Positions 28,623-45,100 of a stretch of 64,000 nt of DNA are shown one piece after another. A program made the translations under genes and the position numbers. This DNA is from Butyrivibrio sp. GTDB lineage: Bacteria > Bacillota > Clostridia > Lachnospirales > Lachnospiraceae. The notes beneath the pieces are model-generated. The model had not been told where the DNA came from and searched no databases. It saw nothing but the letters and a program-made list of their open reading frames with translations. Every line of letters starts with the position of its first letter. Position 1 is the first letter of the stretch. The DNA is taken from positions 1 through 64,000 of the forward strand of contig JAKVKH010000017.1 in NCBI GenBank assembly GCA_022486625.1. Direction: 5' to 3'.

Positions 28623-28694
28623 GGCTCGTTGGTCAAGAGGCTAAGACGCTGCCCTCTCACGGCAGAATCATGGGTTCGATTCCCGTACGAGCTA
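28623..28694 (+). tRNA. tRNA-Glu (anticodon CTC)
   Basis: 72 nt without an encoded CCA. The acceptor stem GGCTCGT/ACGAGCT closes with one G-T pair, the anticodon stem CTGCC/GGCAG encloses the loop CTCTCAC with anticodon CTC, and the T-arm carries GGTTCGATTCC. It is one of only two plus-strand genes and is followed by a terminator. Confidence 0.96.
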
Positions 28695-28729
28695 CTGACT
28701 ATTTATAATGAATAGCCCAACCCGAAAGA

Positions 28730-28768
28730 AGCTGTGTATTGATGAAAATCAGTATACAGCTTTTTTTT
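28730..28768 (+). terminator. Intrinsic terminator after tRNA-Glu
   Basis: Stem AGCTGTGTA/TATACAGCT with an internal wobble pair, followed by eight T residues on the plus strand. Confidence 0.85.
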
Positions 28769-28820
28769 GCCCTGAAGTCCGGCTGTTTTCTTCCGTGGTG
28801 GCAGGCTGTCAGCCCTGCCA

Positions 28821-30002
28821 TCACTTTCTTAAAAGATTTACAGATTCAACATTCTGATAATACCAGTTCATTCTTTTCCGGATCTGTGTTTCACTCATTA
28901 CCTTTCCGCTTTTTCCTCTGATCTGTCCATCATTGGTTTTCAGCTCTCCGCTGAATATTTTTAACTTCCCACTCAGGATATCTGCTCTTGCCTGCTCTAT
29001 TTTTTCTTTTCCCCCGGGCAAACCAAAGCTTTCAGGATCCGTAATATTTACAAGTCCGTCCTGTATGCCACCGTAGTAATTATATCCCTTCCATGTTCCG
29101 TTCATAATTTTTTCAACTGCATCCGTATAATATACTGACCAGTCCCAGACTACGGAAGTCAGTACAGAATGCGGTGCCACTTCCTGCATGTCTGAATTAT
29201 ATCCGATTCCCATGATTCCGGCTCTTGCCGCCGCAAGCTGCGTTGCCGGAGAATCACAGTGCTGCGCCAGAATGTCACATCCTCCGTCCATCAGTTGCTC
29301 CGCTGCCGCCGTTTCTGCATCCGGATCATTCCAGCTCTCCGTACAGCATACCAGCACTCTGCACTTCTTATTCACCGCATTTACGCCCAGTGCAAATGCA
29401 TTTACGCTGCCGGTTACTTCAGAGCTTTTAAGTCCCTTGGCTGCAACAAATCCGACACGGTCTGTCTTTGTGTTCATACCGGCAATCATCCCGGAAAGAT
29501 ATCTGGCTTCATAAAGTCTGCCGAAATAATTTACGAGATTACTTCCGTTACTTTGTGTTCCGCTGCATACGGCAAATACCGTATCCGGATATTTCATTGC
29601 ATAGGTTCTGCAGATGTCCATAAAACCGACACTGGTTGCAAAGATAATATTACAATGTGCCTGAATCAACTCATGAAACGCTTCTTCAATTGCGGTATCA
29701 TCACTTTCACTGATACTGCTTCTGCTGATAATCTGACTGTCTGTCAGCCCCAGCTGTTTCTGCATTTTCTTTATTCCTGCCCAGTGTGCATAAGAATAAC
29801 CCGTTCCGGTTTCCGGATCTCCATTATAGATCACTCCGATACATATCTTTTTCCCAACTGCGGGATACAGCCCGTCCACATTCTGCTCTGTCGTTACCGC
29901 CACACTGTCCTGCTCAGCAGACATATGCTGCGAATCCGCACATCCGCACAGCATAACTGCCATCATCAGCAGCGCTGTCAGCCTGAATCGCATTTTTTTC
30001 AT
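28821..30002 (-). CDS. BMP-family (PnrA/Med-like) lipoprotein
   Basis: Substrate-binding lipoprotein of the basic membrane protein family, whose characterised members bind purine nucleosides. Signal peptide with lipobox LCGC (lipidated Cys 21), then a type I periplasmic-binding fold: KICIGVIYNGDPETG, YSYAHWAGIKKMQ, NIIFATSVGFMD, ARYLSGMIAGMNTKTDRVGFVA and the hinge region DILAQHCDSPA. The C-terminal 60 residues exceed the core. It is the last gene of the seven-gene signalling operon: its ATG overlaps the kinase stop by 4 bases. No ABC ATPase or permease is nearby, unlike ordinary BMP transporters, so I infer a sensing role as an extracellular ligand carrier for the kinases; an orphan transport role remains possible. 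Confidence 0.85.
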   Translation of the reverse strand: MKKMRFRLTALLMMAVMLCGCADSQHMSAEQDSVAVTTEQNVDGLYPAVGKKICIGVIYNGDPETGTGYSYAHWAGIKKMQKQLGLTDSQIISRSSISESDDTAIEEAFHELIQAHCNIIFATSVGFMDICRTYAMKYPDTVFAVCSGTQSNGSNLVNYFGRLYEARYLSGMIAGMNTKTDRVGFVAAKGLKSSEVTGSVNAFALGVNAVNKKCRVLVCCTESWNDPDAETAAAEQLMDGGCDILAQHCDSPATQLAAARAGIMGIGYNSDMQEVAPHSVLTSVVWDWSVYYTDAVEKIMNGTWKGYNYYGGIQDGLVNITDPESFGLPGGKEKIEQARADILSGKLKIFSGELKTNDGQIRGKSGKVMSETQIRKRMNWYYQNVESVNLLRK

Positions 30003-32833
30003 CCGCAGCCTTCTTTCCCAGCTCTGTCTTCATCAAGCATCTTCAGCATCTCCTCCGCAACCGACTGTATTCGGTCAAATTCCAGTTCATTTCCTGCTTT
30101 CTGCAACTGCTGCATTTTTTCTTTCAGAATATCCTCCGGCTCTGCTCCTGTCAGTTTTCCAATTGCTTCATCCGTACCGTCCATGTCCATGATTCCCGCG
30201 CAGTCGCGCGTTTTTTTGAGCAACTGTATCAGTTCTTCCCGTTTCAATGATTCCTGCGGCTTTTTTTCACCTTCTTCTGTTTTCAGTATTTTTCTGATTT
30301 TTTCTGAGATAACTCCATATGCCTGTACCAGCAGTTCATGATTTTCCTCGATGTTTTCCCATTTTTCCTCTCTGGCTGCCTGTTCCAGTTCCTTTGCCTT
30401 TTCCGAAAAATCATCTGCGCCAATTGTCTTTGCCGTACTCTTAAGTGCATGTACGGTAATTCTGTAATTATCAGTATCCCTGCATACGTAGAATTCCTGC
30501 AGTTGTCTGATTCTGTCCGTTTCTGCAAAATCATGCAGCATTTCGAGATAAAAAGGGATCTTATTCATGCAGTACTTCAGACCTTCCTCCACATTCAGAA
30601 GTTCCGACAGTTCTTTTATAATTTCATTTTTTTCCGGATTCTGCACCGGTTCATTTTTCTGAACTGTGCCGCATTCGAAAATCAGGTGCGATGTCAGATA
30701 TTTTCTGCAGACTTCAATCAGTGCCGCTTCTTCCACCGGTTTTGCAAGATAATCACTGAATCCCTCCTCCAGATACTGCTGCTTCGCACCAGTCACTGCA
30801 TTTGCCGTCAGCATGATAATCGGCGTATCCCGGTTCAGATTTCCTTCCATCTGCCGCATTCTTCTGAACGTTTCAATTCCATCCGGTGCCGGCATCATAT
30901 GATCCAGAAAAATCAGATCATATTTCTGCATGGTCACTGCCTTCAGACATGCCTCTCCGCCGTCCGCAAGGTCCACATGCATCCGGGATGCAGAAAAAAG
31001 TTCTTCCATTACCCGCAGATTCATTTTCACATCATCTACCACCAGCACATACGCATCCGGCGCCTGAAACCATAGCTGATGCTGTGGAAGTCGTTCCCTG
31101 ATATTCCGGATTCTGTCAGAATAATTTCCAATCGGCTCTATGGAAACTGTTTTCTGCGGCAAAATCACTGTAAATACTGTACCCTTTCCATATTCGCTTT
31201 CCACGCTGATCTGCCCGTTCATCAAGGTAACCAGTTGCCTGGTAATGGAAAGGCCAAGACCGGTTCCCTCAATTCCGCGGTTGATCTTTTCATCCACACG
31301 CTCATAAGATACAAACAGTTGATCAATGTTTTCCGGCCGGATACCGATTCCGGTATCTTTCACATGGATGATCAGATTGATGCCATCTTCTGACACCTTT
31401 TCGTAGTCAATCTGAAACAGCACCTCCCCCCGACGTGTATATTTCACGGCATTGGTCAGAAGATTGATGATAATCTGCCGAATTCTCATTTCATCACCCT
31501 GAAGCTTTGAAGGAATATCCCGGTTATTCTCGACTCTGAGTGTGAGTCCCTTTCCCTGTGCCCGCATAATGATCATGTTATAGCAGTCATTAATCAGAGA
31601 AGAAAGGTCATAAACAGCAGGAACAATCTGCATCTTTCCGGTTTCAATACTGGAAAAATCAAGAATATCATCCATAATGGAAAGAAGCGATGAAACCGCA
31701 TTTCTGATGTCTGCCGCGTGATCAAGCATTCCTGGATCTGTACTTTCCCGCAGAATCAGACTGTTCATACCGGTAATGGTATTTACCGGAGTCCTGATTG
31801 CATGCGACATTTCCGCCAGGAATACACTTTTTTCCTCATTCAGCTCATACGCTGCAAAATCCTGCAACTGCAGTTGTTCCACTTCTCTGATAAACTGAAT
31901 CAGAAGCGTCAGGCAAAGAGCAAGAATCCCTGCTACATACAACGAATACAGGCCTCCCATTCCAAAAGCAATCCGCATGAACGCATCGGTTCCTGCACAG
32001 ATCAGGAAAGCAGCCGTGCCCGTCAGTATCATTCTGTCCTTCAGATTTTTTCCCATAAAAATCATGTAGAACAAAAGTGGTATCACTGTATAACCCGCCA
32101 GAATACGTTCCATATACTGTGCAAATCCGATATTCTGCATAAATGCCTGCCGCATGGGCGAATGCATCAGAAGCTGCAGACCCGACATGATCATAAAAAA
32201 GCTGAGGCATGCATATTCCGGAACCTCCTTGCGAAGCAGTGCCACAAGATAATAAACCAGTATGAATATTCCACCCAGCAGAATCAGAAAAGAAGCAACT
32301 ATGGTGAACGCATTGATTCTGAGCAGATGATAGATAATTGCCGTCTTGTCTCCCAGATACATTTTGTCAAGCCAGCCGCCAAAGCTCTTTTCTCCGGTAT
32401 CATAGCAGATTTTCAGCTGCTGATCGCTGTCGCTGCTGTGCAGCTTGACCATATACCATTCCGACGGTATTTTCTCTCCAAGCGGATACCATGCAGCTGC
32501 CTGATCATTTCCCACACAGACACCTCCGATGTACACACGTACATTCAGATTTGCCGTATACAGAAACAGTACTTCCCCTTCCTGAATTCCATCCGGAAGT
32601 TTTCTGCTGAGAATACATTTCTGCCCTGAATCTAAATCCAGATAATGAGGAAGCGAAAAATTATGTTCTTCCATATCTGCTGTTTTTAACTGAATTCCGC
32701 TTTCTATTGTCCTGTAGGTTCCTTCATCAAAGCCATTATTTTCGTGTGGATATACAGCACTGAATATGGTGACCAGCACTACTGCCAGAAGAATCAGTCC
32801 ATATATTTCCCACGTCCTGCTGCCTCTCTTCAC
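29999..32833 (-). CDS. 7TM hybrid histidine kinase with REC and HPt domains (cassette 2)
   Basis: 944 residues. One membrane helix (about 9-28), an extracellular beta-rich domain (about 32-165, resembling the 7TMR-DISM sensor type), seven further helices (about 170-318), HisKA (about 335-400), HATPase_c with NAVKYT, DTGIGI and GTGLGLSI, a receiver domain with phospho-Asp 644 in LDHMMP, an HPt domain with His 795 in VHALKS, and an extra helical tail (about 850-944). The phospho-acceptor box is SHAIRTP: His 344 is present, but the acidic residue after it is Ala 345. Its paralogue at 36028-38844 has the same change. Start overlaps the upstream kinase by 4 bases; downstream overlap with the lipoprotein is also 4 bases. 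Confidence 0.9.
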   Translation of the reverse strand: MKRGSRTWEIYGLILLAVVLVTIFSAVYPHENNGFDEGTYRTIESGIQLKTADMEEHNFSLPHYLDLDSGQKCILSRKLPDGIQEGEVLFLYTANLNVRVYIGGVCVGNDQAAAWYPLGEKIPSEWYMVKLHSSDSDQQLKICYDTGEKSFGGWLDKMYLGDKTAIIYHLLRINAFTIVASFLILLGGIFILVYYLVALLRKEVPEYACLSFFMIMSGLQLLMHSPMRQAFMQNIGFAQYMERILAGYTVIPLLFYMIFMGKNLKDRMILTGTAAFLICAGTDAFMRIAFGMGGLYSLYVAGILALCLTLLIQFIREVEQLQLQDFAAYELNEEKSVFLAEMSHAIRTPVNTITGMNSLILRESTDPGMLDHAADIRNAVSSLLSIMDDILDFSSIETGKMQIVPAVYDLSSLINDCYNMIIMRAQGKGLTLRVENNRDIPSKLQGDEMRIRQIIINLLTNAVKYTRRGEVLFQIDYEKVSEDGINLIIHVKDTGIGIRPENIDQLFVSYERVDEKINRGIEGTGLGLSITRQLVTLMNGQISVESEYGKGTVFTVILPQKTVSIEPIGNYSDRIRNIRERLPQHQLWFQAPDAYVLVVDDVKMNLRVMEELFSASRMHVDLADGGEACLKAVTMQKYDLIFLDHMMPAPDGIETFRRMRQMEGNLNRDTPIIMLTANAVTGAKQQYLEEGFSDYLAKPVEEAALIEVCRKYLTSHLIFECGTVQKNEPVQNPEKNEIIKELSELLNVEEGLKYCMNKIPFYLEMLHDFAETDRIRQLQEFYVCRDTDNYRITVHALKSTAKTIGADDFSEKAKELEQAAREEKWENIEENHELLVQAYGVISEKIRKILKTEEGEKKPQESLKREELIQLLKKTRDCAGIMDMDGTDEAIGKLTGAEPEDILKEKMQQLQKAGNELEFDRIQSVAEEMLKMLDEDRAGKEGCG

Positions 32834-35193
32834 TGCTCTGCACCTCCTGCCGCAAACGTATTCAGCACAGTCTGCAATGTCCTCCGTGTCAGAGGTTTCA
32901 TCAGCAGCCCGTCAAATGCCTTTTCCGAAACCATATTTTCAAGCTCACCACTGTCTTCTGCAGTCAGCATGTAAATTTTCGTTTCTGCATTCCGGTGCTG
33001 CACATCATTTCTGATTCTTCTGCATGCTGCTTCCCCATTAAGCCCCGGCATCAGATAATCCATCAGAATCAGGTCATATCTTCTGTCCGCTGCCATCTCT
33101 ACCGCAGCAAACCCGTCTTCTGCCAGTTCCGGCTCTATCTTCATGTCATGCAGAAGTTCTTCTGCAATTCTCCGGTTCATGGGTTCATCATCTGCCACCA
33201 GAACTTTCAGTCGGGAATAGTCTTCCTGTCCTTCTGTATCCGGAATTTCCTCCTGTGGCTCCAACTGTACTTCACAACCAAGTGCAGCCGGCGCTGTCAC
33301 CTGCTGCAGAATCAGCACACTGAAATCAGATCCGATTCCCGTTGTGCTCCTGACCGTAATATCACCTTCCATCATATGCGCAAGACTGTATGCAATATAG
33401 AGTCCAAGCCCTGCCCCTGCAGTTCCGTCAGAAAGATGTCTGAACTGATGAAACAGAGTCGGCAGGTTTTCTTTTTCAATCCCGCTTCCGGTATCTCTCA
33501 CTTCCATTTTCAGGCAGGTTTTTTTATCCTCTGTCGGCTCTGCGCTGACATTTACGATCACCGCGCCACTTTTTGTATGTGCATAGGCATTTTCAATCAG
33601 GCAGGACATGATCTGACAGATCCTGCTCTCATCTCCGCACATTCCGGATGGCAACTCCGGAGAATATCTGAACACGGTCTGTACCTTACCGGATGCATTT
33701 CTTTCATATTTTCTGACCATCTCCCGCAGATCCTTCAGCAGCGTCTGCGTCTGATAGCCATCCTCTGTCAGTTTCATTCTTCCGGAATCAATTCTGGAAC
33801 TGTCCAGAATTTTATTGATCAAAGACAGCAGCTTTTCCGCAGCCTCCGCAACATATCCGGTTCTTTCCCGGGTTACTGAATCTCCTGCTTCCTTCTGCAT
33901 CCTGGTTGCTGTCCCGATAATCGCATTTACCGGTGTTCGGATTTCGTGAGATACATTCGCCAGAAATTCGCTCTTTGCCTTCGCCTGCCTGATTGCCACT
34001 TTCTTTTTACTGTCATCACTCTGAATCTGAAGTGATGCCCATCTGTATATACAGATGCAGTAGATCAGTGCTCCGATTGCCATAAATCTTCCATGCTGCA
34101 TATATTCACTGGCAAGTGCAAAGCCCATCTCCAAAAGTGCTGCAAATCCCAGGGATGCATAGGCATAGGCAAGCCAGCGCATTTCATGAAAAAGCGCCCG
34201 GTCCCCGTAATATACCAGAATCATGGTAATATAGGTATACAGAACTGCCATACCGATCATCATCAGTGTAACCCAGTTAATCTGCAGATAATCCATATGC
34301 AGTATGAAAACAGAAAAAAATACAACAAAAATGGAAATCAGATCCACTGCACTTAAAATATGTGCTGCAAACTGATATCGATATCTTGTAATTCTGTCTG
34401 TTGTACAGATCACAGGAATGGGGATCATCATCAATGCGAAAAATTCAAGAAACCTTGCGTAGGAAATATCCTTAAAAAAGAGCTGTGCCAACCCCGTCTG
34501 GAGGCAAAGCCATATTCCGGTAAAAAAGACAAAAACACCAATATAAGTACTTTCCTGCCGGTAGCGAATCCATTTTTTCACTACAAACTGCAGTACCATC
34601 ATGGTAATGCCAAACGCAACCATAAGGATTCCGCCTGCCAGCGCAGGAAGTTTCTGCATCACCAAAGTATGAATGATGTCGGTACGATCTCCGATATAAA
34701 TCATTCCGATATTTCCACGATAAGACGTATAAGGGCTGCCAAATACAATAGTCAGCTTTTTCCCTCCGTCACTCTTTTTCAAAGGCAGAAAGATCTTCGC
34801 ACTCGCCGGATATTTACTTGCCAGAAGTCCGCCCATTCCGTAGTATTCCTTTACCAGAGCCCCGCTGATATAGATGCTGACCGTGTTCAGCGGTGCCGGT
34901 ACCTCCAGATACCAGCCGCCGGAGATATACTGCGGCAGTGAATGTTCAATAGTTACCGTCTGTACGCTGTTCGGAACTCTTATCCTCGTTGGAAGTGAAA
35001 TTTCCTGCACATGTGTCCCATCGTCTTCCATGTACTGCCATCCACTTGAAAGTGCATAACATTCCTGCGTATCAAAGCCGTCCTTCATATAGGGGCGCGA
35101 ATAGTTTGCAACCACATGTATGATCAGAACTGCCAGCAGAAGCATATAAATATTCCAGATTCTGCGAAGTGTTTTTTTCCGTTTCTTCATCAA
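32830..35193 (-). CDS. 7TM hybrid histidine kinase with REC domain (cassette 2)
   Basis: 787 residues. Helix (about 12-30), extracellular beta-rich domain (about 35-172), seven helices (about 180-385), HisKA with canonical SHEIRTP (His 416), HATPase_c with ENAYAHT, DTGSGI and GAGLGLYIA, and a C-terminal receiver with phospho-Asp 712 in LMDYLMP. There is no HPt. The acidic residue next to the His is intact, so this member should autophosphorylate, while its partner at 29999-32833 carries the HPt. Overlaps the response regulator by 4 bases upstream and its partner by 4 bases downstream. The ligand is unknown. Confidence 0.9.
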   Translation of the reverse strand: MMKKRKKTLRRIWNIYMLLLAVLIIHVVANYSRPYMKDGFDTQECYALSSGWQYMEDDGTHVQEISLPTRIRVPNSVQTVTIEHSLPQYISGGWYLEVPAPLNTVSIYISGALVKEYYGMGGLLASKYPASAKIFLPLKKSDGGKKLTIVFGSPYTSYRGNIGMIYIGDRTDIIHTLVMQKLPALAGGILMVAFGITMMVLQFVVKKWIRYRQESTYIGVFVFFTGIWLCLQTGLAQLFFKDISYARFLEFFALMMIPIPVICTTDRITRYRYQFAAHILSAVDLISIFVVFFSVFILHMDYLQINWVTLMMIGMAVLYTYITMILVYYGDRALFHEMRWLAYAYASLGFAALLEMGFALASEYMQHGRFMAIGALIYCICIYRWASLQIQSDDSKKKVAIRQAKAKSEFLANVSHEIRTPVNAIIGTATRMQKEAGDSVTRERTGYVAEAAEKLLSLINKILDSSRIDSGRMKLTEDGYQTQTLLKDLREMVRKYERNASGKVQTVFRYSPELPSGMCGDESRICQIMSCLIENAYAHTKSGAVIVNVSAEPTEDKKTCLKMEVRDTGSGIEKENLPTLFHQFRHLSDGTAGAGLGLYIAYSLAHMMEGDITVRSTTGIGSDFSVLILQQVTAPAALGCEVQLEPQEEIPDTEGQEDYSRLKVLVADDEPMNRRIAEELLHDMKIEPELAEDGFAAVEMAADRRYDLILMDYLMPGLNGEAACRRIRNDVQHRNAETKIYMLTAEDSGELENMVSEKAFDGLLMKPLTRRTLQTVLNTFAAGGAEQ

Positions 35194-35966
35194 AGATGCG
35201 CTTCTTTCTTTCTGGCAAAAAAGCTGTCAACTTCAGCAATGATCTTCTCAGGTTCCATCGTTTTAAGCAAATATCCCTCCGGTCTCAGCTTTGCTATGTC
35301 TGTCACTATGGTTCTGTCATTGCATGCAGTCAGAAAAATAATGGGAATGGTTTCAAAATCCCTCTCTGAGCGGATCATTTCAAGTACCTGTTTTCCATTC
35401 AGCACCGGCATCTCATAATCCAGCAGAATCAGGTCCGGCATTTCCATTGTCAGATATTTAATTGCCATTGCTCCTGACTTTGCGACTGTCACATCATATT
35501 TTTCTCCCAGCCATTCCTTGATCTTGCGAAGCATTTCAAAAGAATCATCCACCACCAGTATTCTGTATCTGATGCCCTCTCTTTTCTTTTTTACCAGTTC
35601 CGCCACATATGCAGCGACTTCCTCAATGTTGATCGGACGGATAAAAATCCGGTCAATATATTCTGCGGAAAAGATACGCTCCACATTTTCCATATTAAAA
35701 CGATTTCCCAGAAGAACCAGCGGAATCTGCTCATTTACTGCCCTTTTTCTTAAATAAATCAGTGTTTCATCGCTGATCTGCTCCTGATCAATAAACAGAA
35801 CAATCACACTGACCGGTTCCTTTTCCGTTACAATAGAATCCATATCCGCCTTTGCATGGATTGTCCGGATTCTCTTTTCCGCCAGCTTTTCCTTAAGAGA
35901 AATCAGGAGATAACTGTTTTCTGATGTTACCAGTAATACGGTACTTCCGATTCTGCTCTCACTCAA
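35190..35966 (-). CDS. Double-receiver response regulator without output domain (cassette 2)
   Basis: 258 residues from a TTG start at 35966 that has GAGGGG 7 bases upstream and matches the length and N-terminus of its paralogue; an ATG 29 codons upstream would add unrelated residues and overlap the preceding kinase. The N-terminal receiver (about 9-125) is degenerate: the acidic pair at strand 1 is replaced by VTSE and the conserved Lys-Pro by Arg-Pro, though an Asp remains in LFIDQ. The C-terminal receiver is complete (VVDD, Asp about 183 in LLDYEMP, FLTAC, LLKTM). No DNA-binding or enzymatic domain follows, so it most likely passes phosphate to another protein or acts by protein contact. 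Confidence 0.85.
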   Translation of the reverse strand: MSESRIGSTVLLVTSENSYLLISLKEKLAEKRIRTIHAKADMDSIVTEKEPVSVIVLFIDQEQISDETLIYLRKRAVNEQIPLVLLGNRFNMENVERIFSAEYIDRIFIRPINIEEVAAYVAELVKKKREGIRYRILVVDDSFEMLRKIKEWLGEKYDVTVAKSGAMAIKYLTMEMPDLILLDYEMPVLNGKQVLEMIRSERDFETIPIIFLTACNDRTIVTDIAKLRPEGYLLKTMEPEKIIAEVDSFFARKKEAHL

Positions 35967-36027
35967 TGCCTGTCCCCTCACAATCTGCACCTGCGCAGTA
36001 ATTTGTACCTCTGCCTCTGATATATAT

Positions 36028-38844
36028 TTATTCCGCTGACATATCTTCGTCAAGTGTTTTCATCATTTCTGATGTAATCTGCTGAATCTGATCAAGTTCA
36101 AGCTCATTGCCTGCCTGTGCCAGCTCCTCCATCCTGCCTGCAATCTGGTTCGGCAAAATGCAGCTCTGAAGCTGTCTTATGGCATCACATGCCCCGTCTG
36201 CATCAAATATGCGTGCACAGTCATGTGCCTTATGAAGCAGCTGCAACAGTTCCTCTCCGGAAATATTCTTCTTTACTTCTTTTTTACCGTTATCCCCGAT
36301 GACTTCCCTGATTTTCGCCGTTAATGTATCATAAGCTTCCAGCAGTCCCTGATAATGTGCCTCCATATATGCGCTGTCCTGACTGCGTGCAGCAGCTTCC
36401 AGAGCCTTTGCCTGTTCAGAGATATCATCTGCGCCCAGCGTATGTGCCATGCTCTTAAGAGAATGCACATTGATCCGATAGCTGTCCAGATCTCCCGCCT
36501 GATAACTGTCTCTGATCATCTGCACTCTTTTCGTAGAAAGAAAATCCCGTATCATTTCCATATAAAAAGAAGAATTATTCATGCAGAATTTCATTCCTTC
36601 CGCCGTATTCAGAATATTCTTCAATGCATCAACTGTCAGTTTTTCCTGCTCTCCCTCTGCCTTTTTTACTTCTCCGCCTTGTTCCTCCGGCACTTTTTGA
36701 AAAAGCGCCGGGTTCATATGCTTTCTGCAGATTTCAATCAACATACTCTCTTCCACAGGCTTAGACAGATAATCCGAAAATCCTTCTGCCAGATATTTAT
36801 CCTTTGCACCGATCACGGCATTCGCTGTCAGCATGATCACCGGCGTATTCTGGTTCAGCGGCAGATACATGCTGCGCATGAGGCGGAACGTCTTCACTCC
36901 GTCCGGATCCGGCATCATATGGTCAAGAAAAATAATGTCATAATGTTTCTGCGCCATTTTCTCCAGACAGGCATTCCCGCCATCTGCCAGATCCACCTGC
37001 ATACATGCTTCCTGCAAAAGTGCCTTCATCACTTTCAGGTTCATATCCACGTCATCAACGACCAGCACCTGTGCTTTTGGTGCATAGAACCATGCGGGAC
37101 TCTGTGAATGGTTATCCCTGATCTCCCTGATCCGGTCTGAATAATTCCCGATCGGCTCCGGATCCAGCACTTTCTGCGGAATACTGACATAGAAAACAGA
37201 TCCTTTGCCATATTCACTTTCCACAGATATCTTGCCATTCATCAGAAAGATCAGCTGCCTTGTAATCGACAATCCAAGCCCGGTGCCTTCAATTCCACGG
37301 TTTCTCACCTCATCCAGCCTCTCATAGGAGGTGAACAGCCTGTCAATGTTTTCCGGTTTGATTCCGATCCCGGTATCTCTTACTTCTATTTTGAGACTGA
37401 TCATATCCTCTGTCAGCCTGTCATAACCGATTCTGAATTCGACATGACCAACTCTCGTATATTTCACCGCATTGGTCAGAATATTGATGACAATCTGACG
37501 CAGCCGCATCTCATCTCCTAACAGCTTCGTCGGAATCTGTCTGTCATTTTTCACAATGAAGTCAAGGCCCTTGGCATGCGCTCGCATGACAATCATGTTA
37601 TAGCAATCATTAATCAAAGAAGAAAGATCATATTCTGCCGGCAGAATTTTCATTTTTCCGGATTCGATTTTCGAGAAATCAAGAATGTCATCAATAATTG
37701 ACAGAAGCGATGCTACTGCGTTCTTGATATCTACCGCGTATTCAAGCGTTTTTTCATTCCTGCTTTCTCTTATAATCATGGCATCCATACCCATTACAGT
37801 ATTGACCGGCGTACGAATTGCATGTGACATATCAGCAAGAAAAGCAGTTTTTTCATCATTCTTGAGTACTGCGGCTCTGCGCTCTCTGCGAATACTGCTC
37901 ATATGTAAAATAAACTGACTCATCCACAGAAGACACATCAGCAGTGCGCCGACCACATACAACCAGTAATACTGATTGTTATGAAAAATCAGTTTGGCAA
38001 TCAGATGCAGTATGAGTCCAGCAAAAAAGGCTGTTATACCAATCCATGTCATTTTCTTTTCCGCATTTTTGCCACTGCCAAGAAGATACATGAAAAAAGC
38101 TGCAAGAGACAGAATAAAAAATCCGTTTTCCATGACATTTGCATAGTCAATATTCTGAAGATAAAGCTGACGGACAGGAGAATGCATCAGAAGCTGCAGG
38201 CCGATAATTATCATAAAGCTTCCAAAAAAGCGATACTGTCTGATCTGCGTCTTTCTGAGTACTCCCAGATCATAAATGCGGACGAATAATCCCATAATGA
38301 TCAGGATAAATGCCGTAATCAAAGAAAAGAGATTCACCCGCAGAAGGTGGTACAGAATCGCTGTCTGATCTCCAATATATATTTTTTCAATCCAGCCGGT
38401 ATTTTTCTCTTCTGCTTCATAGATAATCTGCAGTTCTTTCCCTGCATACTGATCTTCCAGCGGAACTCCGATCCATTTTGCAGGAGTTTTACTGCCAAAC
38501 GCCCCCATTCCTGCCGCCTGATAGGTATCCACACATATTCCGTCAATCTCAGCTTCCACATTCATATGCCCGGAATAGAGATACAGAAAATCATCATGAT
38601 CAATGGATTCTGGAAAACGATAAGTCAGAATCACCCTGCCTTCCTGCTGTGGACAAACGTAATATGGAAGCTTCACCGTCTCCGCTTTTCCCTGGTCAAG
38701 TACTGCTGCCCTACTGACCGTCACAAAATCCCGGTCGTCAAAGCCGTCCAGGGAATGCGGTTTCAAAGCACTGATAATGGCAGCCGCAACGGCAATCATC
38801 AAAATAATGCTATAGAGGAAACGTACAAGATCAAACTTTCGCAT
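36028..38844 (-). CDS. 7TM hybrid histidine kinase with REC and HPt domains (cassette 1)
   Basis: 938 residues, starting at the ATG 38844 (GGAGG 8 bases upstream); an ATG 16 codons earlier is weaker. Same order as the paralogue at 29999-32833: helix, beta-rich extracellular domain starting at GFDDRDF, 7TM region, HisKA with SHAIRTP (His 341 followed by Ala 342), HATPase_c with NAVKYT, DTGIGI and GTGLGLSI, receiver with LDHMMP, HPt with VHSLKS, and a conserved helical tail. Retained ATP-binding motifs and HPt alongside loss of the acidic residue suggest weak kinase but active phosphotransfer. Overlaps the upstream kinase by 14 bases; 61 bases separate it from the next response regulator. Confidence 0.9.
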   Translation of the reverse strand: MRKFDLVRFLYSIILMIAVAAAIISALKPHSLDGFDDRDFVTVSRAAVLDQGKAETVKLPYYVCPQQEGRVILTYRFPESIDHDDFLYLYSGHMNVEAEIDGICVDTYQAAGMGAFGSKTPAKWIGVPLEDQYAGKELQIIYEAEEKNTGWIEKIYIGDQTAILYHLLRVNLFSLITAFILIIMGLFVRIYDLGVLRKTQIRQYRFFGSFMIIIGLQLLMHSPVRQLYLQNIDYANVMENGFFILSLAAFFMYLLGSGKNAEKKMTWIGITAFFAGLILHLIAKLIFHNNQYYWLYVVGALLMCLLWMSQFILHMSSIRRERRAAVLKNDEKTAFLADMSHAIRTPVNTVMGMDAMIIRESRNEKTLEYAVDIKNAVASLLSIIDDILDFSKIESGKMKILPAEYDLSSLINDCYNMIVMRAHAKGLDFIVKNDRQIPTKLLGDEMRLRQIVINILTNAVKYTRVGHVEFRIGYDRLTEDMISLKIEVRDTGIGIKPENIDRLFTSYERLDEVRNRGIEGTGLGLSITRQLIFLMNGKISVESEYGKGSVFYVSIPQKVLDPEPIGNYSDRIREIRDNHSQSPAWFYAPKAQVLVVDDVDMNLKVMKALLQEACMQVDLADGGNACLEKMAQKHYDIIFLDHMMPDPDGVKTFRLMRSMYLPLNQNTPVIMLTANAVIGAKDKYLAEGFSDYLSKPVEESMLIEICRKHMNPALFQKVPEEQGGEVKKAEGEQEKLTVDALKNILNTAEGMKFCMNNSSFYMEMIRDFLSTKRVQMIRDSYQAGDLDSYRINVHSLKSMAHTLGADDISEQAKALEAAARSQDSAYMEAHYQGLLEAYDTLTAKIREVIGDNGKKEVKKNISGEELLQLLHKAHDCARIFDADGACDAIRQLQSCILPNQIAGRMEELAQAGNELELDQIQQITSEMMKTLDEDMSAE

Positions 38845-41182
38845 CTCTCGCACCTCCTCTGACACCTGCCTGCAGCATTGCTTCCACAGCATTCTCTCTG
38901 GTCACCGGTTTGAGAATATATCCTGCAAATCCCATTTCCGTAATGCTGTTTCTGAATGCCTCCTGATTCTCTGCCGTCAGCATGATTACCGGTGTCTTCT
39001 GATTGATTCCGCTACCGGATCTGATTCTGCAAAAGACTTCTTCTCCATTCATTCCCGGCATCAAATGATCCATCAGAATTGCATCATATGGCGTCTGCTC
39101 TGCTCTGCCAAGTGCTTCCATTCCATCTGATGCCGTATCCACTGTAATTCCGGTATCTGAAAGTACATTGCGGGCGATTTTCAGATTCATTGGTTCATCA
39201 TCCACAACCAAAATGTGACAATCTGAAAGTTTCCGCTCTGCATTTTCCGGATTTTCCATTTCCGGTGCCACTGCTCTGTATATGCCAAGAGGTACCGACG
39301 AGCTTATTTCCTGCGGAATTTCAATGGTAAAAAGAGAGCCGATCCCATCAGCGCTTTCAACGTCAATGGTTCCGTTCATCATCTGCGCCAGCTTCCATGA
39401 GATGGACAGTCCAAGGCCTGCGCCCTGCGCCTCATAACCTGGTCTTTTGAACTGGCTGAAAATATCTGTCTGTCCGTCATCGGAAATTCCTCTGCCGGTA
39501 TCCCGTATCCGTATGATCAGAATCAGATCACCATTATCCTTCATCCTGTAATTCAAACTGATGATAACTGCACCATCATCTGTGTATTTAAATGCATTTT
39601 CCACAATATGCGTAACCATCGTACATATTTTGGGTTCATCCCCATATAGCACTGAGGGTAGTTCCGGATTATTTTTCAAAATGTATTTTACTCCGGATTT
39701 AAAATATCTTTCCGCATTCTCATTCAGGTCCTCAATTAAGAGCGCCACAGCATAGTCCGCCTTTGTCAGCGCCATTTTCCCTGATTCCAGTTTGGAACTG
39801 TCAAGAATTTTATTAATCAAAGATAACAGTTCCCTTGCAGAATATTCAATGTCATCTGCATAGGAAATAATCTTCGGTTCTGTACTCTCGCGCTTTAGCA
39901 TGTCATCTATTCCCAGAATGGCATTGACAGGCGTCCTGATCTCATGCGACATGTTAGCAAGAAATTCACTCTTAGCCGAAGTCTGTCTTCTTACCTTTTC
40001 CTTCTCGATTTCATCCTTTCGGATCTGCTGCATCCCCCAGCGGAATGCACAGGTGCAGTAAATCACAACTGCCGGAAGCATAAAGGAGCCAACATGAACA
40101 TAGGAATCAAACACCGCATCCATGATCTCAAGTACGGTTCCGGCTCCCAGAAAAAAGTTAGCATACACAAGCCATTTCAGGTCATCAAACAATGCCCGGT
40201 CAGTCAGTCTGATCTGGATAAAAGTTCCCATAACATAGAGCACCGTTGCACACAAAACCAGCAGATTGATCCAGTTTACCTCAAGGAAATCCATCTGCCT
40301 GTAATAGACCAGTCCAAAAATAAGAATAATGCTGCCAATACTGATAAATGACAGGATCTGTGCCAATGTATGATGAATCTGCATCGTTACGCTGTCAATA
40401 TGCCGGATAACCGGGATCGGTATACTCAGCAGGGCAAAAAACTCTGCTGCACGCGCGAATGCAATGTCCTGAAATACGAGCTGTGCCATTCCCGACTGCA
40501 AAAGAAACCATATACCGATCAGAAGAATATATACGCCCATGAAAAAATAATCATTTCTGTGTGTTACCCACTTTTTCATGAAAATCCGAAGAATCAGAAG
40601 GATAACTCCTACCACAACAAGAATGGTTCCACCAACCAGTGCGGTCCATACAGATGCGATCATATGATAGATAATCGCAGTATGATCTCCGATATAGATA
40701 TTTCCGATACTTCCGTCATATGGTTGTATCGGACTTTTGAAAGTAATTGTCAGTTTTTTCCCGGCATCTTTCTGATGAAGCCTGACAAAAAGTTTCTCAT
40801 TTGCAGGCATGCCGGACGCCAGAAACCCTTTCGGGCCGGTATAATCAAGTACCTGTGTCTGATCAATATACACCTGTACCAGATCAAGCGGTGCGGGTAT
40901 TTCCAGATACCATCCAACAGGAATGGACGCCGGAAGTCTACGTGAAACAGTCACCTCGGAAAGTGTCTGCGAAAATCTGACCTTCACAGGCAATGTTGTC
41001 TGCTGCACTTTACTATTTCCAAGAAAAATGTCCCATTTCTCCGAAAGTGCATAACATTCCCCTGAATCAAAGCCTTCACTTATATATGGACGGCTGAAAC
41101 TCAGAATCGTGTAAATCACTACACTTATTATGACTGCAAGGTAAACATACCATGCTTTCTCATAAATTTTTTCTTTTTTCAT
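38831..41182 (-). CDS. 7TM hybrid histidine kinase with REC domain (cassette 1)
   Basis: 783 residues. Helix (about 12-30), beta-rich extracellular domain (about 33-172), seven helices (about 175-385), HisKA with canonical SHEIRTP (His 413), HATPase_c with ENAFKYT, DTGRGI and GAGLGLSI, and a receiver with Asp 705 in LMDHLMP and a conserved Lys in YILKPV. Paralogue of 32830-35193 with the same architecture and similar length. It begins 3 bases after the response regulator stop and overlaps its HPt partner by 14 bases, which favours equal amounts of the two kinases and perhaps heteromer formation. Confidence 0.9.
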   Translation of the reverse strand: MKKEKIYEKAWYVYLAVIISVVIYTILSFSRPYISEGFDSGECYALSEKWDIFLGNSKVQQTTLPVKVRFSQTLSEVTVSRRLPASIPVGWYLEIPAPLDLVQVYIDQTQVLDYTGPKGFLASGMPANEKLFVRLHQKDAGKKLTITFKSPIQPYDGSIGNIYIGDHTAIIYHMIASVWTALVGGTILVVVGVILLILRIFMKKWVTHRNDYFFMGVYILLIGIWFLLQSGMAQLVFQDIAFARAAEFFALLSIPIPVIRHIDSVTMQIHHTLAQILSFISIGSIILIFGLVYYRQMDFLEVNWINLLVLCATVLYVMGTFIQIRLTDRALFDDLKWLVYANFFLGAGTVLEIMDAVFDSYVHVGSFMLPAVVIYCTCAFRWGMQQIRKDEIEKEKVRRQTSAKSEFLANMSHEIRTPVNAILGIDDMLKRESTEPKIISYADDIEYSARELLSLINKILDSSKLESGKMALTKADYAVALLIEDLNENAERYFKSGVKYILKNNPELPSVLYGDEPKICTMVTHIVENAFKYTDDGAVIISLNYRMKDNGDLILIIRIRDTGRGISDDGQTDIFSQFKRPGYEAQGAGLGLSISWKLAQMMNGTIDVESADGIGSLFTIEIPQEISSSVPLGIYRAVAPEMENPENAERKLSDCHILVVDDEPMNLKIARNVLSDTGITVDTASDGMEALGRAEQTPYDAILMDHLMPGMNGEEVFCRIRSGSGINQKTPVIMLTAENQEAFRNSITEMGFAGYILKPVTRENAVEAMLQAGVRGGARDAKV

Positions 41183-41185
41183 ACA

Positions 41186-41959
41186 TCAGAGTTTCTCGGC
41201 TTTTTTCTCTGCAAAAAAAGTATCCACCTGAGCAATAATCTGTTCAGGATCCATCGTCTTGAGCAGATACCCCTCCGGTTTAAGCTTCGCTATGTCCATG
41301 ACCACATTTCTGTCATTGCATGAGGTCAGGAACATGATCGGAATTGTTTCAAAATCTTTTTCCGAACGTATCATTTCCAGCACCTGTTTGCCGTTTAATA
41401 CCGGCATTTCATAATCCAGAAGAATAAGATCCGGTATCTCCATTGTCAGATATTTAATGGCCATGGTCCCTGACTTAGCCACAATCACCTGATACTTTCC
41501 CTGAAGCCATTCCTTGATCTTCTTCAACGTATCTGCAGAATCATCCACTACCAGAATTTTCTTTTTGACACTTGCATTTCTCGCCTTGATGATCGCCTGC
41601 ACATGCGCTGCCACCTCATCCACATTAATAGGCCGAAAAAAGATGCTGTCAATAAAGTCTTTGGAAATAGACTTCTGAACCGCCTCAATATTATATTTAT
41701 CTCCAAGAAGAATTATGGGAATATTTCCGGTATCTGCACGATCACGAAGAAAAACCAGTACCTCATCACCGATCGGTGTCTGGTCTACATATACAAGAAT
41801 TACGTTTGCTTTTTCCTTAGACTGAAATATGGAAGCAATATCCGCATCAACGCTGACTGTCCTGATCCTGCGTTCTGCCAGTTTATCAATCAGTGACACC
41901 ATCAGGTAGCTGTGCTCGGTAGTTACCAGTAAAGCAAGATTGCCTAACCCGTCTGCCAT
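41186..41959 (-). CDS. Double-receiver response regulator without output domain (cassette 1)
   Basis: 257 residues, first gene of the seven-gene operon. The N-terminal receiver-like domain (about 8-125) lacks the acidic pair (LVTTEH) and has Arg-Pro in place of Lys-Pro. The C-terminal receiver (about 134-255) is complete: Asp 139/140, phospho-Asp 182 in LLDYEMP, Thr 212, Lys 234. No output domain. GGAG stands 7 bases before the ATG. Paralogous over its full length to 35190-35966. Confidence 0.88.
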   Translation of the reverse strand: MADGLGNLALLVTTEHSYLMVSLIDKLAERRIRTVSVDADIASIFQSKEKANVILVYVDQTPIGDEVLVFLRDRADTGNIPIILLGDKYNIEAVQKSISKDFIDSIFFRPINVDEVAAHVQAIIKARNASVKKKILVVDDSADTLKKIKEWLQGKYQVIVAKSGTMAIKYLTMEIPDLILLDYEMPVLNGKQVLEMIRSEKDFETIPIMFLTSCNDRNVVMDIAKLKPEGYLLKTMDPEQIIAQVDTFFAEKKAEKL

Positions 41960-42021
41960 GGAAATACTCCTTTTCGCAAGCCGTAATAACGATTATTCAT
42001 AAAATAGAAACTAATAAAATC

Positions 42022-42050
42022 ATTATATCAAATCACCGTTTAATTGTAAA
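42022..42050 (-). promoter_or_regulatory. Promoter of the seven-gene signalling operon
   Basis: TTTACA (42045-42050) and a perfect TATAAT (42022-42027), read on the minus strand, are 17 bases apart. Predicted start near 42015 and a leader of about 55 nt. No other strong promoter is evident inside the operon, though the 61-base gap at 35967-36027 could hold one. Confidence 0.7.
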
Positions 42051-42105: not shown

Positions 42106-45100
42106 TCACATGCCAAAGTCAAAAAGGCTGATCTGATTACTTTCCGGAATTTCTCCCAGAAGTCCCAGCTCATTCAGCGTATCAATTACTCCCTGCGGAC
42201 ACTTGGTTCTGTCTCTGAAGTCATCTCTTGACAGGAACGGTCCGTCCTTTGCCGCTTCCACTACTGCATCAGCGGCTTTTTCACCCATTCCGTCTATGCT
42301 CTTTAACGATGGCATGATCTTGTCTCCAACCACCTGAAACAGTCTTGATTTTGCCGTAAATATATCAATCGATGCAAATTCAATGCCTCTTTCATACATT
42401 TCTTCAACAACACGCATATCGCCGTACTCTGCCTGCTCAGTATTGGATAACTCATCCTTCCTGTTGTTGTACTCATTCATGACACTGTGAAGATGATTCT
42501 CTCCCTGACACATGTCCTTATAGGAAAACGCTTTTGCACGGATACTGAACCATGCGGCATAAAATGCCTGCGGTACGTACACCTTGAAATAGGCAATACG
42601 CCAGGCCATCATTACATATGCCGCCGCATGTGCCTTCGGAAACATGTACTTGATTTTCAGGCAGGACTGAATGTACCATTCCGGAACGCCTGCCGCAATC
42701 ATGGCTTCCTTCATTTCAGGCTTTAATCCCTTTCCCTTTCGAACCGACTCCATGGTCTTGAAAGAAAGCGATTTGTCCATTCCCTTCTGAATCAGATAGA
42801 TCATGATATCATCACGGGTACAGATAGCAGTATCAATGGTTGCCGTGCCTTCCATGATGAGTGTCTGCGCATTACCCAGCCATACATCCGTTCCATGTGC
42901 AAGACCTGCAATACGGATCAGATGAGAGAAAGAGGTCGGCTGTGCATCAATAACCATCTGCATGGCAAAATCCGTACCGAATTCCGGAAGTCCAAGGCAT
43001 CCGAGCTTTGTTCCGCCAATCTGATCCGGTGTAATGTTCAGTGCCGAAGTATCTTCAAACAAACTCATGACATTATGATCATCCAGCGGCACCAGCTTGG
43101 GATCAAGCCCGGTACAGTCCTGAAGGAAACGGATCATGGTCGGATCATCATGTCCCAGAATATCCAGTTTCAACAGGTTATGGTCAATGGAATGGTAATC
43201 ATAATGTGTTGTTACCGTTGCCGTTGTCATATCGTTTGCCGGATGCTGCACGGGGGTAAAGGAATTAATATCCTCTCCTACAGGAAGCACGATGATTCCG
43301 CCGGGATGCTGACCGGTTCCTCTTCTGACACCGACCAGTCCCTGCAGCACTCTGTTGATCTCACATTTTCTCTTACCCTGCCCCAGTCCGTCATAGAACT
43401 TCTTTACATAACCGTATGCAGTCTTATCTGCCAGACCAGCAATGGTTCCTGCACGGAAAGTCTGCCCGTATCCAAAAATAACCTCTGTATATTTGTGTGC
43501 CTTACTCTGATATTCACCGGAAAAGTTCAGATCGATATCCGGCTCCTTATCTCCTTTAAATCCAAGGAATGTCTCAAACGGAATATCAAACCCGTCCTTA
43601 TTCATCATGTGTCCGCATTTCGGACAACGCTTATCCGGCATATCACATCCGGATTTTCCTGAAAAAGCCTTCACATCATCTGAATCAAAATCACTGTAAT
43701 GACATTTCGGGCATACATAGTGTGGGCTTAAGGAATTCACTTCCGTAATACCTGAAGTAAATGCAACAAAAGAAGATCCGACAGACCCACGCGAGCCTAC
43801 CAGATACCCATCTTCATTCGATTTCCATACCAGCTTCTGTGCAATGATATACATTACGGCAAATCCGTTGGAAATGATGGAATGAAGCTCCTTTTCCAGT
43901 CTTTCCTCTACAATGGAGGGCAACGTTTCTCCATATATTTCATGTGCACGGTTGTAGCAGATTGTAGTCAGAATCTTATCGCTGTCCGGAATGACAGGCG
44001 GACATTTATCCGGTCTGACCGGAGAAATGCTGTCACACATATCCATAACTTTACGTGTATTGGTAATACAGATTTCCCGCGCCTTATCTGTTCCCAGATA
44101 ATCAAATTCCTTCAGCATTTCCTCTGTGGTTCGAAGGTAAAGCGGTGCCGGTGCCTCATCATCAAAGCCCCGTCCTGCCTGAATAATCTGCCGGTAAATC
44201 TGATCCTCCGGATTCAGAAAATGTACATCACAGGTTGCTACAACAGGCTTATGAAACTGTTCTCCCAGTGTGCAGATCCTTTTATTGATCTCTCTGATAT
44301 CATCATCAGAATGAATATCATCATAATGATCAGAATCCACCATGAAATGGTTGTTTCCGATCGGCTGGATTTCCAGATAATCGTAGAAATTGACCAGTCT
44401 GGCAATCTCCTGTTCCGGGCGATCTTCCACGACTGCGCCGTAAAGTTCTCCAGCGCAGCATGCACTTCCGATAATAAGTCCCTCTCTGTATTTCATCAGT
44501 TCGCTCTTGGGAATCAGCGGAAATCTCTGAAAATAAGTCAGATGAGATTTACTGACAAGCGTATACAGGTGCACTCTGCCCAGCGTATTCTTCGCCAGAA
44601 TGATACAGTGATGCGGCCGCAGATGCCTTACCATCTCGGGTGTAGATACTCCGAGTGCATTAACCTCAGTCAGATTCTGCACATTTTTTTCCTGCATCAT
44701 GGGCACGAATTTCAGGAAAATAAGCGCAGTACATTCCGCGTCATCTACTGCGCGGTGATGGTGCTCAAGCGAAATATTCAGCGTCTTTGCTACTGCATCC
44801 AGTGTATGCTTGGCCTGCAGCGGGAAAAACACCCTGGAAATTCCCAGTGTATCCACTGTAGTAAACTCTGCAGTAATCCCCAGTTCCTTACAGTTCTGAT
44901 TAATAAAGCTGATATCAAAACTGACATTATGTCCGACCAGCACACATCCCTCACAAAACTCCAGAAATTTCGGAATAATAACATCTCTCGTCGGCGCATT
45001 CATTACCATCTCATCATTGATACTGGTCAGTTTCTCAATTCGGAACGGAATCGGCACCTCGGGATTAACGAACTCAGAAAAACGATCAATGATCTCCCCG

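What the first reader, a model, noticed from the sequence alone, without database searches (positions are those of the whole stretch)
28821..42050. Seven-gene membrane phosphorelay operon built from two tandem cassettes and a BMP lipoprotein
Two consecutive three-gene cassettes have the same order: output-less double-receiver protein, 7TM hybrid kinase (REC), 7TM hybrid kinase (REC-HPt). They are paralogous gene by gene (257/258, 783/787 and 938/944 aa). Start-stop overlaps or 3-14 base junctions couple most genes, and a BMP-family lipoprotein closes the operon with a 4-base overlap. One good promoter precedes the whole. Known: BMP lipoproteins normally feed ABC transporters, and hybrid kinases normally end on a DNA-binding regulator; both are absent here. 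Inference: a two-channel surface signalling complex whose output is a protein contact or a distant target, with the lipoprotein presenting a ligand (possibly a nucleoside).
Basis: partly seen in the sequence, partly recalled or inferred. Interest (0 to 1): 0.85.

Follow-up and report, generated by a model that had tools for sequence, protein, structure and literature searches.

The report
Lipoprotein-coupled double phosphorelay operon
Seven adjoining bacterial genes appear to build a cell-surface sensor in which a lipoprotein with a purine-binding pocket works with four membrane kinases; it is an unusual, duplicated version of a known way of sensing rather than a new kind of machine.

Summary
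The seven-gene operon is real: two paralogous cassettes of A (pseudo-receiver plus receiver), B (7TM hybrid kinase, no HPt) and C (hybrid kinase, REC-HPt), then a BMP lipoprotein; junctions 3, -14, 61, -1, -4, -4 bases. A is not a working double receiver: REC1 is degenerate, REC2 is intact in 58 of 58 aligned homologues. No second copy of the full order turned up in the sampled genomes; one other genome has a single A-B-C cassette, and metagenome proteins 73-78% identical to B1, B2, C2 and BMP exist (linkage unseen). A-kinase pairs are common (53 of 59 A loci). BMP belongs to the AtzT/3s99 purine-base group, keeps its pocket and nests among ABC-transporter BMPs. A separate class of BMP genes sits directly before hybrid kinases in 19 of 20 loci (seven followed by REC-GGDEF), so BMP-kinase coupling is recurrent. 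Best model: purine-loaded BMP modulates B/C; B feeds C's HPt as LadS feeds GacS; HPt phosphorylates A-REC2; output probably reaches c-di-GMP (inferred from relatives only). New variant of a known kind: solute-binding-protein-coupled kinases.

The parts
42022..42050 (-). putative sigma-70-type promoter, TTTACA-17-TATAAT with TG before -10
   Evidence: 11 of 12 matches; sequence; 62 bases before the A1 start codon
41186..41959 (-). A1, 257 aa: N-terminal pseudo-receiver plus C-terminal intact receiver (REC2 residues 135-245)
   Evidence: low-confidence model, receiver folds
38831..41182 (-). B1, 783 aa: TM helix, beta-sandwich ectodomain, seven-helix membrane part, HisKA-HATPase-REC, no HPt
36028..38844 (-). 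C1, 938 aa: membrane sensor, HisKA-HATPase-REC-HPt (HPt motif VHSLKS at residues 793-798)
35190..35966 (-). A2, 258 aa (TTG start): paralogue of A1, 62% identical
32830..35190 (-). B2, 786 aa: paralogue of B1, 41% identical, no HPt
29999..32833 (-). C2, 944 aa: paralogue of C1, 49% identical, REC-HPt (VHALKS)
28821..30002 (-). BMP-family (PF02608) lipoprotein, 393 aa, lipobox LCGC near residue 21, AtzT-like purine-base pocket residues kept

Best explanation
A solute-binding-protein-coupled, two-cassette phosphorelay. Shown: gene order, domain content, intact kinase, receiver and HPt motifs, and the purine-base-type pocket. Inferred: (1) the BMP lipoprotein, anchored outside the membrane, binds a free purine base (adenine- or guanine-like) and, loaded or empty, contacts the ectodomains of the B and/or C kinases. 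(2) B has no HPt, so its receiver can act only through another protein's HPt; the partner in the same cassette is C, as LadS feeds the HPt of GacS. B and C thus form a two-input kinase pair joined at C's HPt. (3) C's HPt phosphorylates the intact second receiver of A; A's first half is a pseudo-receiver that serves for docking or dimerisation. (4) Phosphorylated A is the diffusible end product of each cassette, and the downstream effect most likely runs through c-di-GMP enzymes encoded elsewhere. The two cassettes diverged long ago and probably have different partners or ligands. My odds: step 1 coupling 0.6, purine ligand 0.6, step 2 0.5, step 3 0.65, step 4 c-di-GMP 0.35.
For: Cassette and packing. 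B without HPt, C with HPt. A and a kinase as neighbours: 53 of 59 A loci examined, window included, have a hybrid kinase within 1.5 kb, 48 with a match that reaches the HPt part (these are the best-scoring, capped loci). The A homologues are in 101 of 299 family genomes at E 1e-20 and 79 of 79 genus genomes. REC2 key residues D139, D140, D182, T212, K234 are kept in 58 of 58; REC1 has G for T in 57 and R for K in 56 of 58. A-B-C in the same order in G137 (L049); B-C pairs without A in L011 (own genome), L213, L236 and L237. BMP best solved relatives: AtzT 6pi5 E 1e-53 and 3s99 E 3e-52; Med (2hqb) E 2e-13. The AtzT pocket (Y45, S97, E165, W194) is kept, with H and D at 218 and 220 as in the 3s99 alignment. 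BMP-kinase gene pairs: 19 of 20 ~370-aa BMP loci; independent L224. c-di-GMP: kinase relatives that share C's sensor are followed by REC-GGDEF in L216, L217 and L219 (in L219 after a LytTR gene) and by REC-HD_5 in L227, i.e. 4 of the 20 loci annotated; in 7 of 19 BMP-kinase loci the next gene is REC-GGDEF; B-type sensors are fused to GGDEF in L230. Precedents: LadS-GacS HPt (passages of PMC7695008); SBP-activated receptors (passages of PMC9602780).
Against: No binding, phosphotransfer or transcript data. The complete operon was not found in any other sampled genome, so co-conservation of BMP with these kinases rests on proteins whose DNA I could not see; two of them (P0011, B-like; P0020, BMP) list the same longest-contig length, 13,075, which suggests but does not show linkage. 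In the closest cassette (G137) the BMP gene is in an ABC operon on another contig. The window's own operon and the C-A pairs hold no c-di-GMP gene. In the BMP-kinase class the kinases have two TM segments in the five examined, not seven, so they do not show that 7TM kinases take BMP. One survey passage predicts sugars for nearly all Bmp-family proteins (PMC9602780). NCBIfam's only match is a putative B6-transporter model, far below cut-off (59.9 of 400 bits). The ectodomain also resembles sugar-binding domains, so B may bind a ligand of its own.
Confidence: 0.5

Rival explanations
1. The BMP lipoprotein is simply a transporter component that lost its neighbours: it feeds an ABC transporter encoded elsewhere (for example the one beside the second BMP gene), and the kinases sense other ligands on their own.
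For: The window BMP nests inside ABC-transporter BMPs with support, and 22 of 39 BMP loci examined have the ABC ATPase beside them. The genome has a second BMP gene that I read as part of an ATPase-permease-permease cluster (L016).
Against: Four-base overlap with C2; the second BMP is of another subfamily (27% identical, pocket residues differ), so its transporter is not an obvious partner; the BMP relatives of this clade changed Phe98/Trp to Val and Gly169 to Ser, as if released from the transporter. BMP genes beside kinases and chemoreceptors are common. I did not search the genome for other ABC genes of the AtzT-type set.
Confidence: 0.25
2. The output is not c-di-GMP: phosphorylated A acts directly by protein contact (chemotaxis or flagellar parts, Spo0A/Spo0F-type relay) or works as a phosphate sink that switches the kinases off.
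For: A has no output domain and is widespread as a C-A pair without a c-di-GMP gene; stand-alone receivers such as Spo0F, DivK and CheY work this way (recalled).
Against: Homologous kinases and sensors are coupled to GGDEF and HD-GYP domains; the genome has 47 GGDEF matches, 46 over the cut-off, which also means that c-di-GMP genes are so many that their presence is weak evidence.
Confidence: 0.4
3. The two cassettes are independent, insulated relays that merely sit in tandem; no cross-talk and no common role for BMP.
For: B1 and B2 fall in separate, supported clades with their own metagenome relatives (B1 with P0002 and P0003-P0006; B2 with P0009), so the duplication is old and each copy is under its own constraint; one cassette alone occurs in G137.
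Against: Joint packing in one operon behind one good promoter. The relatives at 73-78% for B1, B2, C2 and BMP fit a sister species that kept both cassettes and BMP, although linkage there was not seen.
Confidence: 0.3

Closest known systems
Bacillus subtilis Med-KinD (BMP-family lipoprotein required by a histidine kinase; Banse 2011, known to me by title from reference lists; the paper itself is not held)
   Same: A BMP-family lipoprotein that serves a kinase rather than a transporter; Med's structure 2hqb is among the PDB matches of the window BMP (E 2e-13).
   Different: KinD is a TM-dCache-HisKA-HATPase kinase (table in PMC11210211), one kinase only; here four hybrid kinases with a beta-sandwich plus 7TM sensor (modelled for B1).
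SBP-kinase receptors LuxP-LuxQ, TorT-TorS, XylFII-LytS (partly recalled; the principle is in passages of PMC9602780 and PMC11113362)
   Same: Solute-binding protein encoded beside a (hybrid) kinase.
   Different: Other SBP and sensor families; here a duplicated B-C kinase pair and output-less A proteins.
LadS/RetS-GacS multikinase network of Pseudomonas
   Same: 7TM hybrid kinase without HPt beside a hybrid kinase with REC-HPt; the B1 model's ectodomain weakly matches RetS's (3jyb, Foldseek E 1e-2); LadS feeds the GacS HPt (PMC7695008).
   Different: B and C are operon partners and both have membrane sensors; Pfam finds no 7TMR-DISM domain in B or C sensors; the end point is A, not a GacA-type regulator.
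AtzT and 3s99 purine-base-binding BMP proteins
   Same: 35% or so alignment over nearly the whole protein by phmmer (E 1e-53, 3e-52); pocket residues Y, S, E, W kept.
   Different: No ABC genes beside the window BMP; H/D at 218/220 where AtzT has N/N (3s99 has H/D in the alignment); V at 98.
BMP(-BMP)-hybrid kinase(-REC-GGDEF) operons of the same bacterial family (found here; not seen described in my ten paper searches)
   Same: BMP gene packed against a hybrid kinase gene, pocket mostly kept.
   Different: Their BMPs form other clades, their kinases have two TM segments in those examined, the BMP precedes the kinase, 12 of 19 have two BMP genes, and 7 of 19 are followed by REC-GGDEF.

Membership tests
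SBP-activated histidine kinase (LuxPQ / TorTS / XylFII-LytS / Med-KinD type) | solute-binding-protein gene in the same operon as the kinase | tested here: met
   BMP overlaps C2 by 4 bases; PF02608
SBP-activated histidine kinase (LuxPQ / TorTS / XylFII-LytS / Med-KinD type) | kinase with an extracytoplasmic sensor domain | tested here: met
   B1 model: TM helix, beta-sandwich, seven helices; hydropathy for the others
SBP-activated histidine kinase (LuxPQ / TorTS / XylFII-LytS / Med-KinD type) | direct binding of SBP to the sensor and change of kinase activity | not testable with these tools
   needs biochemistry
AtzT/3s99 purine-base-binding BMP proteins | BMP fold family and pocket residues (AtzT Y45, S97, E165, W194) | tested here: met
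AtzT/3s99 purine-base-binding BMP proteins | binding of guanine or adenine | not testable with these tools
   needs a binding assay
BMP-ABC transporter (substrate-binding subunit) | ATPase and permease genes beside the BMP gene | tested here: not met
   neighbours are C2 and, after a gap with a tRNA gene on the other strand, the rimP-nusA side of the window; transporter in trans not excluded
LadS/RetS-GacS-type multikinase relay | hybrid kinase without HPt paired with a hybrid kinase with HPt | tested here: met
LadS/RetS-GacS-type multikinase relay | 7TMR-DISM sensor recognised by sequence | tested here: not met
   no such Pfam match up to E 1 for the four sensors; fold match to RetS ectodomain weak
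LadS/RetS-GacS-type multikinase relay | phosphotransfer from the receiver of B to the HPt of C | not testable with these tools
   needs in vitro phosphotransfer
BMP-kinase-REC-GGDEF operon class described here | BMP in the same clade as that class | tested here: not met
   window BMP nests among ABC-type BMPs, support 97/95 and higher
BMP-kinase-REC-GGDEF operon class described here | REC-GGDEF gene in the operon | tested here: not met
   within that class itself only 7 of 19 loci meet it
PleD-type response regulator | two receiver folds in tandem followed by GGDEF | tested here: not met
   A has no GGDEF; Foldseek top rows for the A1 model are PleD, but with rmsd 17-18 over both domains and a low-confidence model

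The most novel reading that the evidence does not exclude
In this bacterial family (probably Lachnospiraceae) AtzT-type lipoproteins have been recruited repeatedly from purine transporters to drive signalling: to chemoreceptors, to two-TM hybrid kinases with REC-GGDEF partners, to the L224 locus (HD-GYP, BMP, A, hybrid kinase), and, separately, to the window's doubled B-C kinase relay. Together they would be a family-wide route by which free purine bases outside the cell set c-di-GMP and movement, with the window as its most elaborate, two-channel form using a pseudo-receiver adaptor (A) as a diffusible end product.
Probability: 0.3. Interest if true: 0.7.

Novelty: new variant of a known kind. 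Interest (0 to 1): 0.5.

Why it matters
If right, it gives a concrete ligand class (purine bases), a concrete relay order (B receiver to C HPt to A second receiver) and a testable output (c-di-GMP) for a group of orphan hybrid kinases and output-less receivers that is very common in this family (A homologues in 79 of 79 genomes of the genus searched). It also shows that a BMP annotation as 'ABC transporter substrate-binding protein' is often a poor guide to function: in the 39 best BMP loci examined, 13 sit beside a chemoreceptor, and a further class sits directly before hybrid kinases (19 of 20 loci).

Tried and rejected
Finding the whole operon elsewhere: the one genome-contig scan with A1 gave a single irrelevant locus (27% identity). 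Samples of whole genomes (B1 sensor: 35 of 299 at E 1e-12; 13 of 79; 6 of 397 at 1e-25; 1 of 1; 2 of 394 at 1e-40; these samples overlap) gave no second copy; the best non-own hit is G137 at 26%. In these searches only a few candidates per genome are scored and hit lists are capped, so a diverged copy could be missed. Relatives at 57-78% are known only as proteins; I could not see their DNA.

Literature: ten searches of the PMC library. I saw listings, and passages only of PMC6834077, PMC3911142, PMC11210211, PMC7695008, PMC9602780, PMC11113362, PMC12415202. The Banse 2011 paper and the 2021 review on solute-binding proteins in signalling are not held. In the listings I saw no description of BMP-hybrid-kinase operons of this family; that is not proof that none is in print.


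Full report
What is there. On the minus strand from 41959 to 28821 lie seven genes in the order A1-B1-C1-A2-B2-C2-BMP. Junctions are 3, -14, 61, -1, -4 and -4 bases. polC ends at 42106 upstream; a promoter-like site with 11 of 12 matches and an extended -10 lies at 42050-42022, though over the region such sites are at chance number (28 against 26.2, sd 4.5). Downstream there is a tRNA-Glu gene on the other strand. Base composition does not set the genes apart.

Domains. B1 and B2 are HisKA-HATPase-REC; C1 and C2 are HisKA-HATPase-REC-HPt; the A proteins show one Pfam receiver each; BMP is PF02608. H, G1, G2, receiver and HPt motifs are intact in the four kinases by pattern; the N-box pattern that I used matched B1 and B2 only and was too narrow for the C proteins, where LTNAVKYT is visible in the alignment. 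Across 58 aligned A proteins (window A1 and A2 included; full-length homologues from the 59 loci) REC2 keeps D139, D140, D182, T212 and K234 in 58 of 58, while REC1 has lost the acidic pair, carries G for the threonine in 57 and R for the lysine in 56, and keeps an acidic D or E at position 59 in 53. So A is a pseudo-receiver joined to a working receiver. A model from two sequences is of low confidence (mean pLDDT 64; residues 1-49 under 50) but matches receiver folds, PleD first.

The B sensor. A model from 11 sequences (mean pLDDT 74) shows a TM helix, a beta-sandwich (residues about 43-166) and seven further membrane helices. The sandwich matches sugar-binding domains of beta-glucuronidases and, weakly, CBM35 and the RetS ectodomain. 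Pfam finds no 7TMR-DISM domain.

Spread of the parts. A homologues: 101 of 299 genomes of the family sample and 79 of 79 of the genus. Of 59 A loci with 1.5 kb flanks (best-scoring, capped lists; window included) 53 have a hybrid kinase beside A and 48 a match reaching the HPt part; six have none. The own genome has two further kinase-A pairs, a B-C pair and a lone C. A-B-C in the window's order was found in G137 only (A 55%, B 34%, C 38% identical). B-C pairs lacking A were seen in L011, L213, L236 and L237. B1 and B2 fall in separate supported clades with their own relatives, so the duplication is older than those splits.

The lipoprotein. Its best solved relatives are AtzT (6pi5) and 3s99, with Med (2hqb) further down. 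AtzT binds guanine (KD 0.11 uM) and adenine (2.5 uM), with Y45 and W194 around the ring and S97, E165, N218, N220 bonding; 3s99 was modelled with adenine (passages of PMC6834077). The window BMP has Y, S, E and W at these places and H and D for 218 and 220, as 3s99 has in the alignment; the same set, with W for Y45 in most of the kinase-linked class and Q for E in five of them, runs through the ABC-, MCP- and kinase-linked BMPs, but not through the other BMP of this genome. Against a purine ligand stand a survey that predicts sugars for nearly all Bmp proteins (passage of PMC9602780) and a far sub-threshold NCBIfam match to a B6-transporter model.

Where such lipoproteins sit. Of 39 best BMP loci of two searches, 22 have the ABC ATPase within 1.5 kb, 13 a chemoreceptor, 2 a kinase (the window and L208), 2 neither. 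I then fetched 20 loci of ~370-aa BMP genes chosen from those hit lists by length, tandem pattern or a nearby kinase hit, so the sample is not random: in 19 a hybrid kinase follows directly on the same strand (18 overlapping, one gap of 40; start codons were taken mechanically, so overlaps are upper bounds), 12 of the 19 have two BMP genes, and the 20th ends at its contig end. Kinases of five were scanned: HisKA-HATPase-REC in all, HPt over the cut-off in three and below it in two. The next gene is REC-GGDEF in 7 of 19, and three more have an HD-GYP-type (HD_5) protein beside them (L242, L244, L252); not every neighbour was scanned. In the tree of 59 BMPs the window BMP and its metagenome kin nest among ABC-type BMPs (97/95 with L099 of G137), away from the kinase-linked clades. 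L224 has an HD-GYP protein, a BMP, an interrupted A gene and a HisKA-HATPase-REC kinase in a row; its BMP is a long branch of unsure place.

How it most likely works. The mechanism in Best explanation follows from: B has no HPt and C has one; A follows or precedes kinases with HPt; LadS, a 7TM hybrid kinase, feeds the HPt of GacS (passages of PMC7695008); ligand-loaded SBPs activate kinases, chemoreceptors and c-di-GMP enzymes in several bacteria (passage of PMC9602780). The c-di-GMP end is the weakest step: it rests on relatives of C (L216, L217, L219, L227), on B-type sensors fused to GGDEF (L230) and on the BMP-kinase class, while the window's operon itself has no such gene. The 47 GGDEF matches in the genome offer many targets and little discrimination.

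Verdict. What is unusual is the doubled A-B-C set with its own separately recruited BMP.

Noticed in passing
L238-L257 (e.g. L243:8758-14788, L246:8564-14611): Operons of one or two ~370-aa BMP genes directly before a hybrid kinase, often with REC-GGDEF next; I saw no description of them in my paper searches.
   Followed up: partly
L103, L104, L108, L114, L115, L116, L117: BMP genes beside a chemoreceptor gene (sCache_3_3, HAMP, MCPsignal in the one scanned, L114); L117 has three BMP genes in a row.
   Followed up: partly
L224:3642-11650: HD-GYP propeller protein, BMP, A gene interrupted into two open pieces, hybrid kinase: a second BMP-A-kinase neighbourhood in another genus.
   Followed up: partly
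L153:52-2685, also L148-L150: Output-less proteins with a C-terminal receiver 40-55% identical to A's REC2; the one scanned by Pfam (L153) has an N-terminal hemerythrin domain.
   Followed up: partly
L230:9014-12410: Two adjacent proteins, the first with a B-type sensor match, both ending in GGDEF, as if paired receptors occur with other outputs too.
   Followed up: no
window 29999-30250 and 36028-36280 (C-terminal ends of C2 and C1): About 80 conserved residues after the HPt domain of the C proteins without a Pfam match; possibly a second, inactive helical bundle.
   Followed up: no
window 28690-28840: Hairpin-rich stretch after the operon, folding energy z-score -3.4, beside a tRNA-Glu gene on the plus strand (28623-28695).
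   Followed up: no
G000, whole genome: 47 GGDEF matches, 46 over the cut-off: a very rich c-di-GMP repertoire for a 3.57 Mb genome.
   Followed up: no
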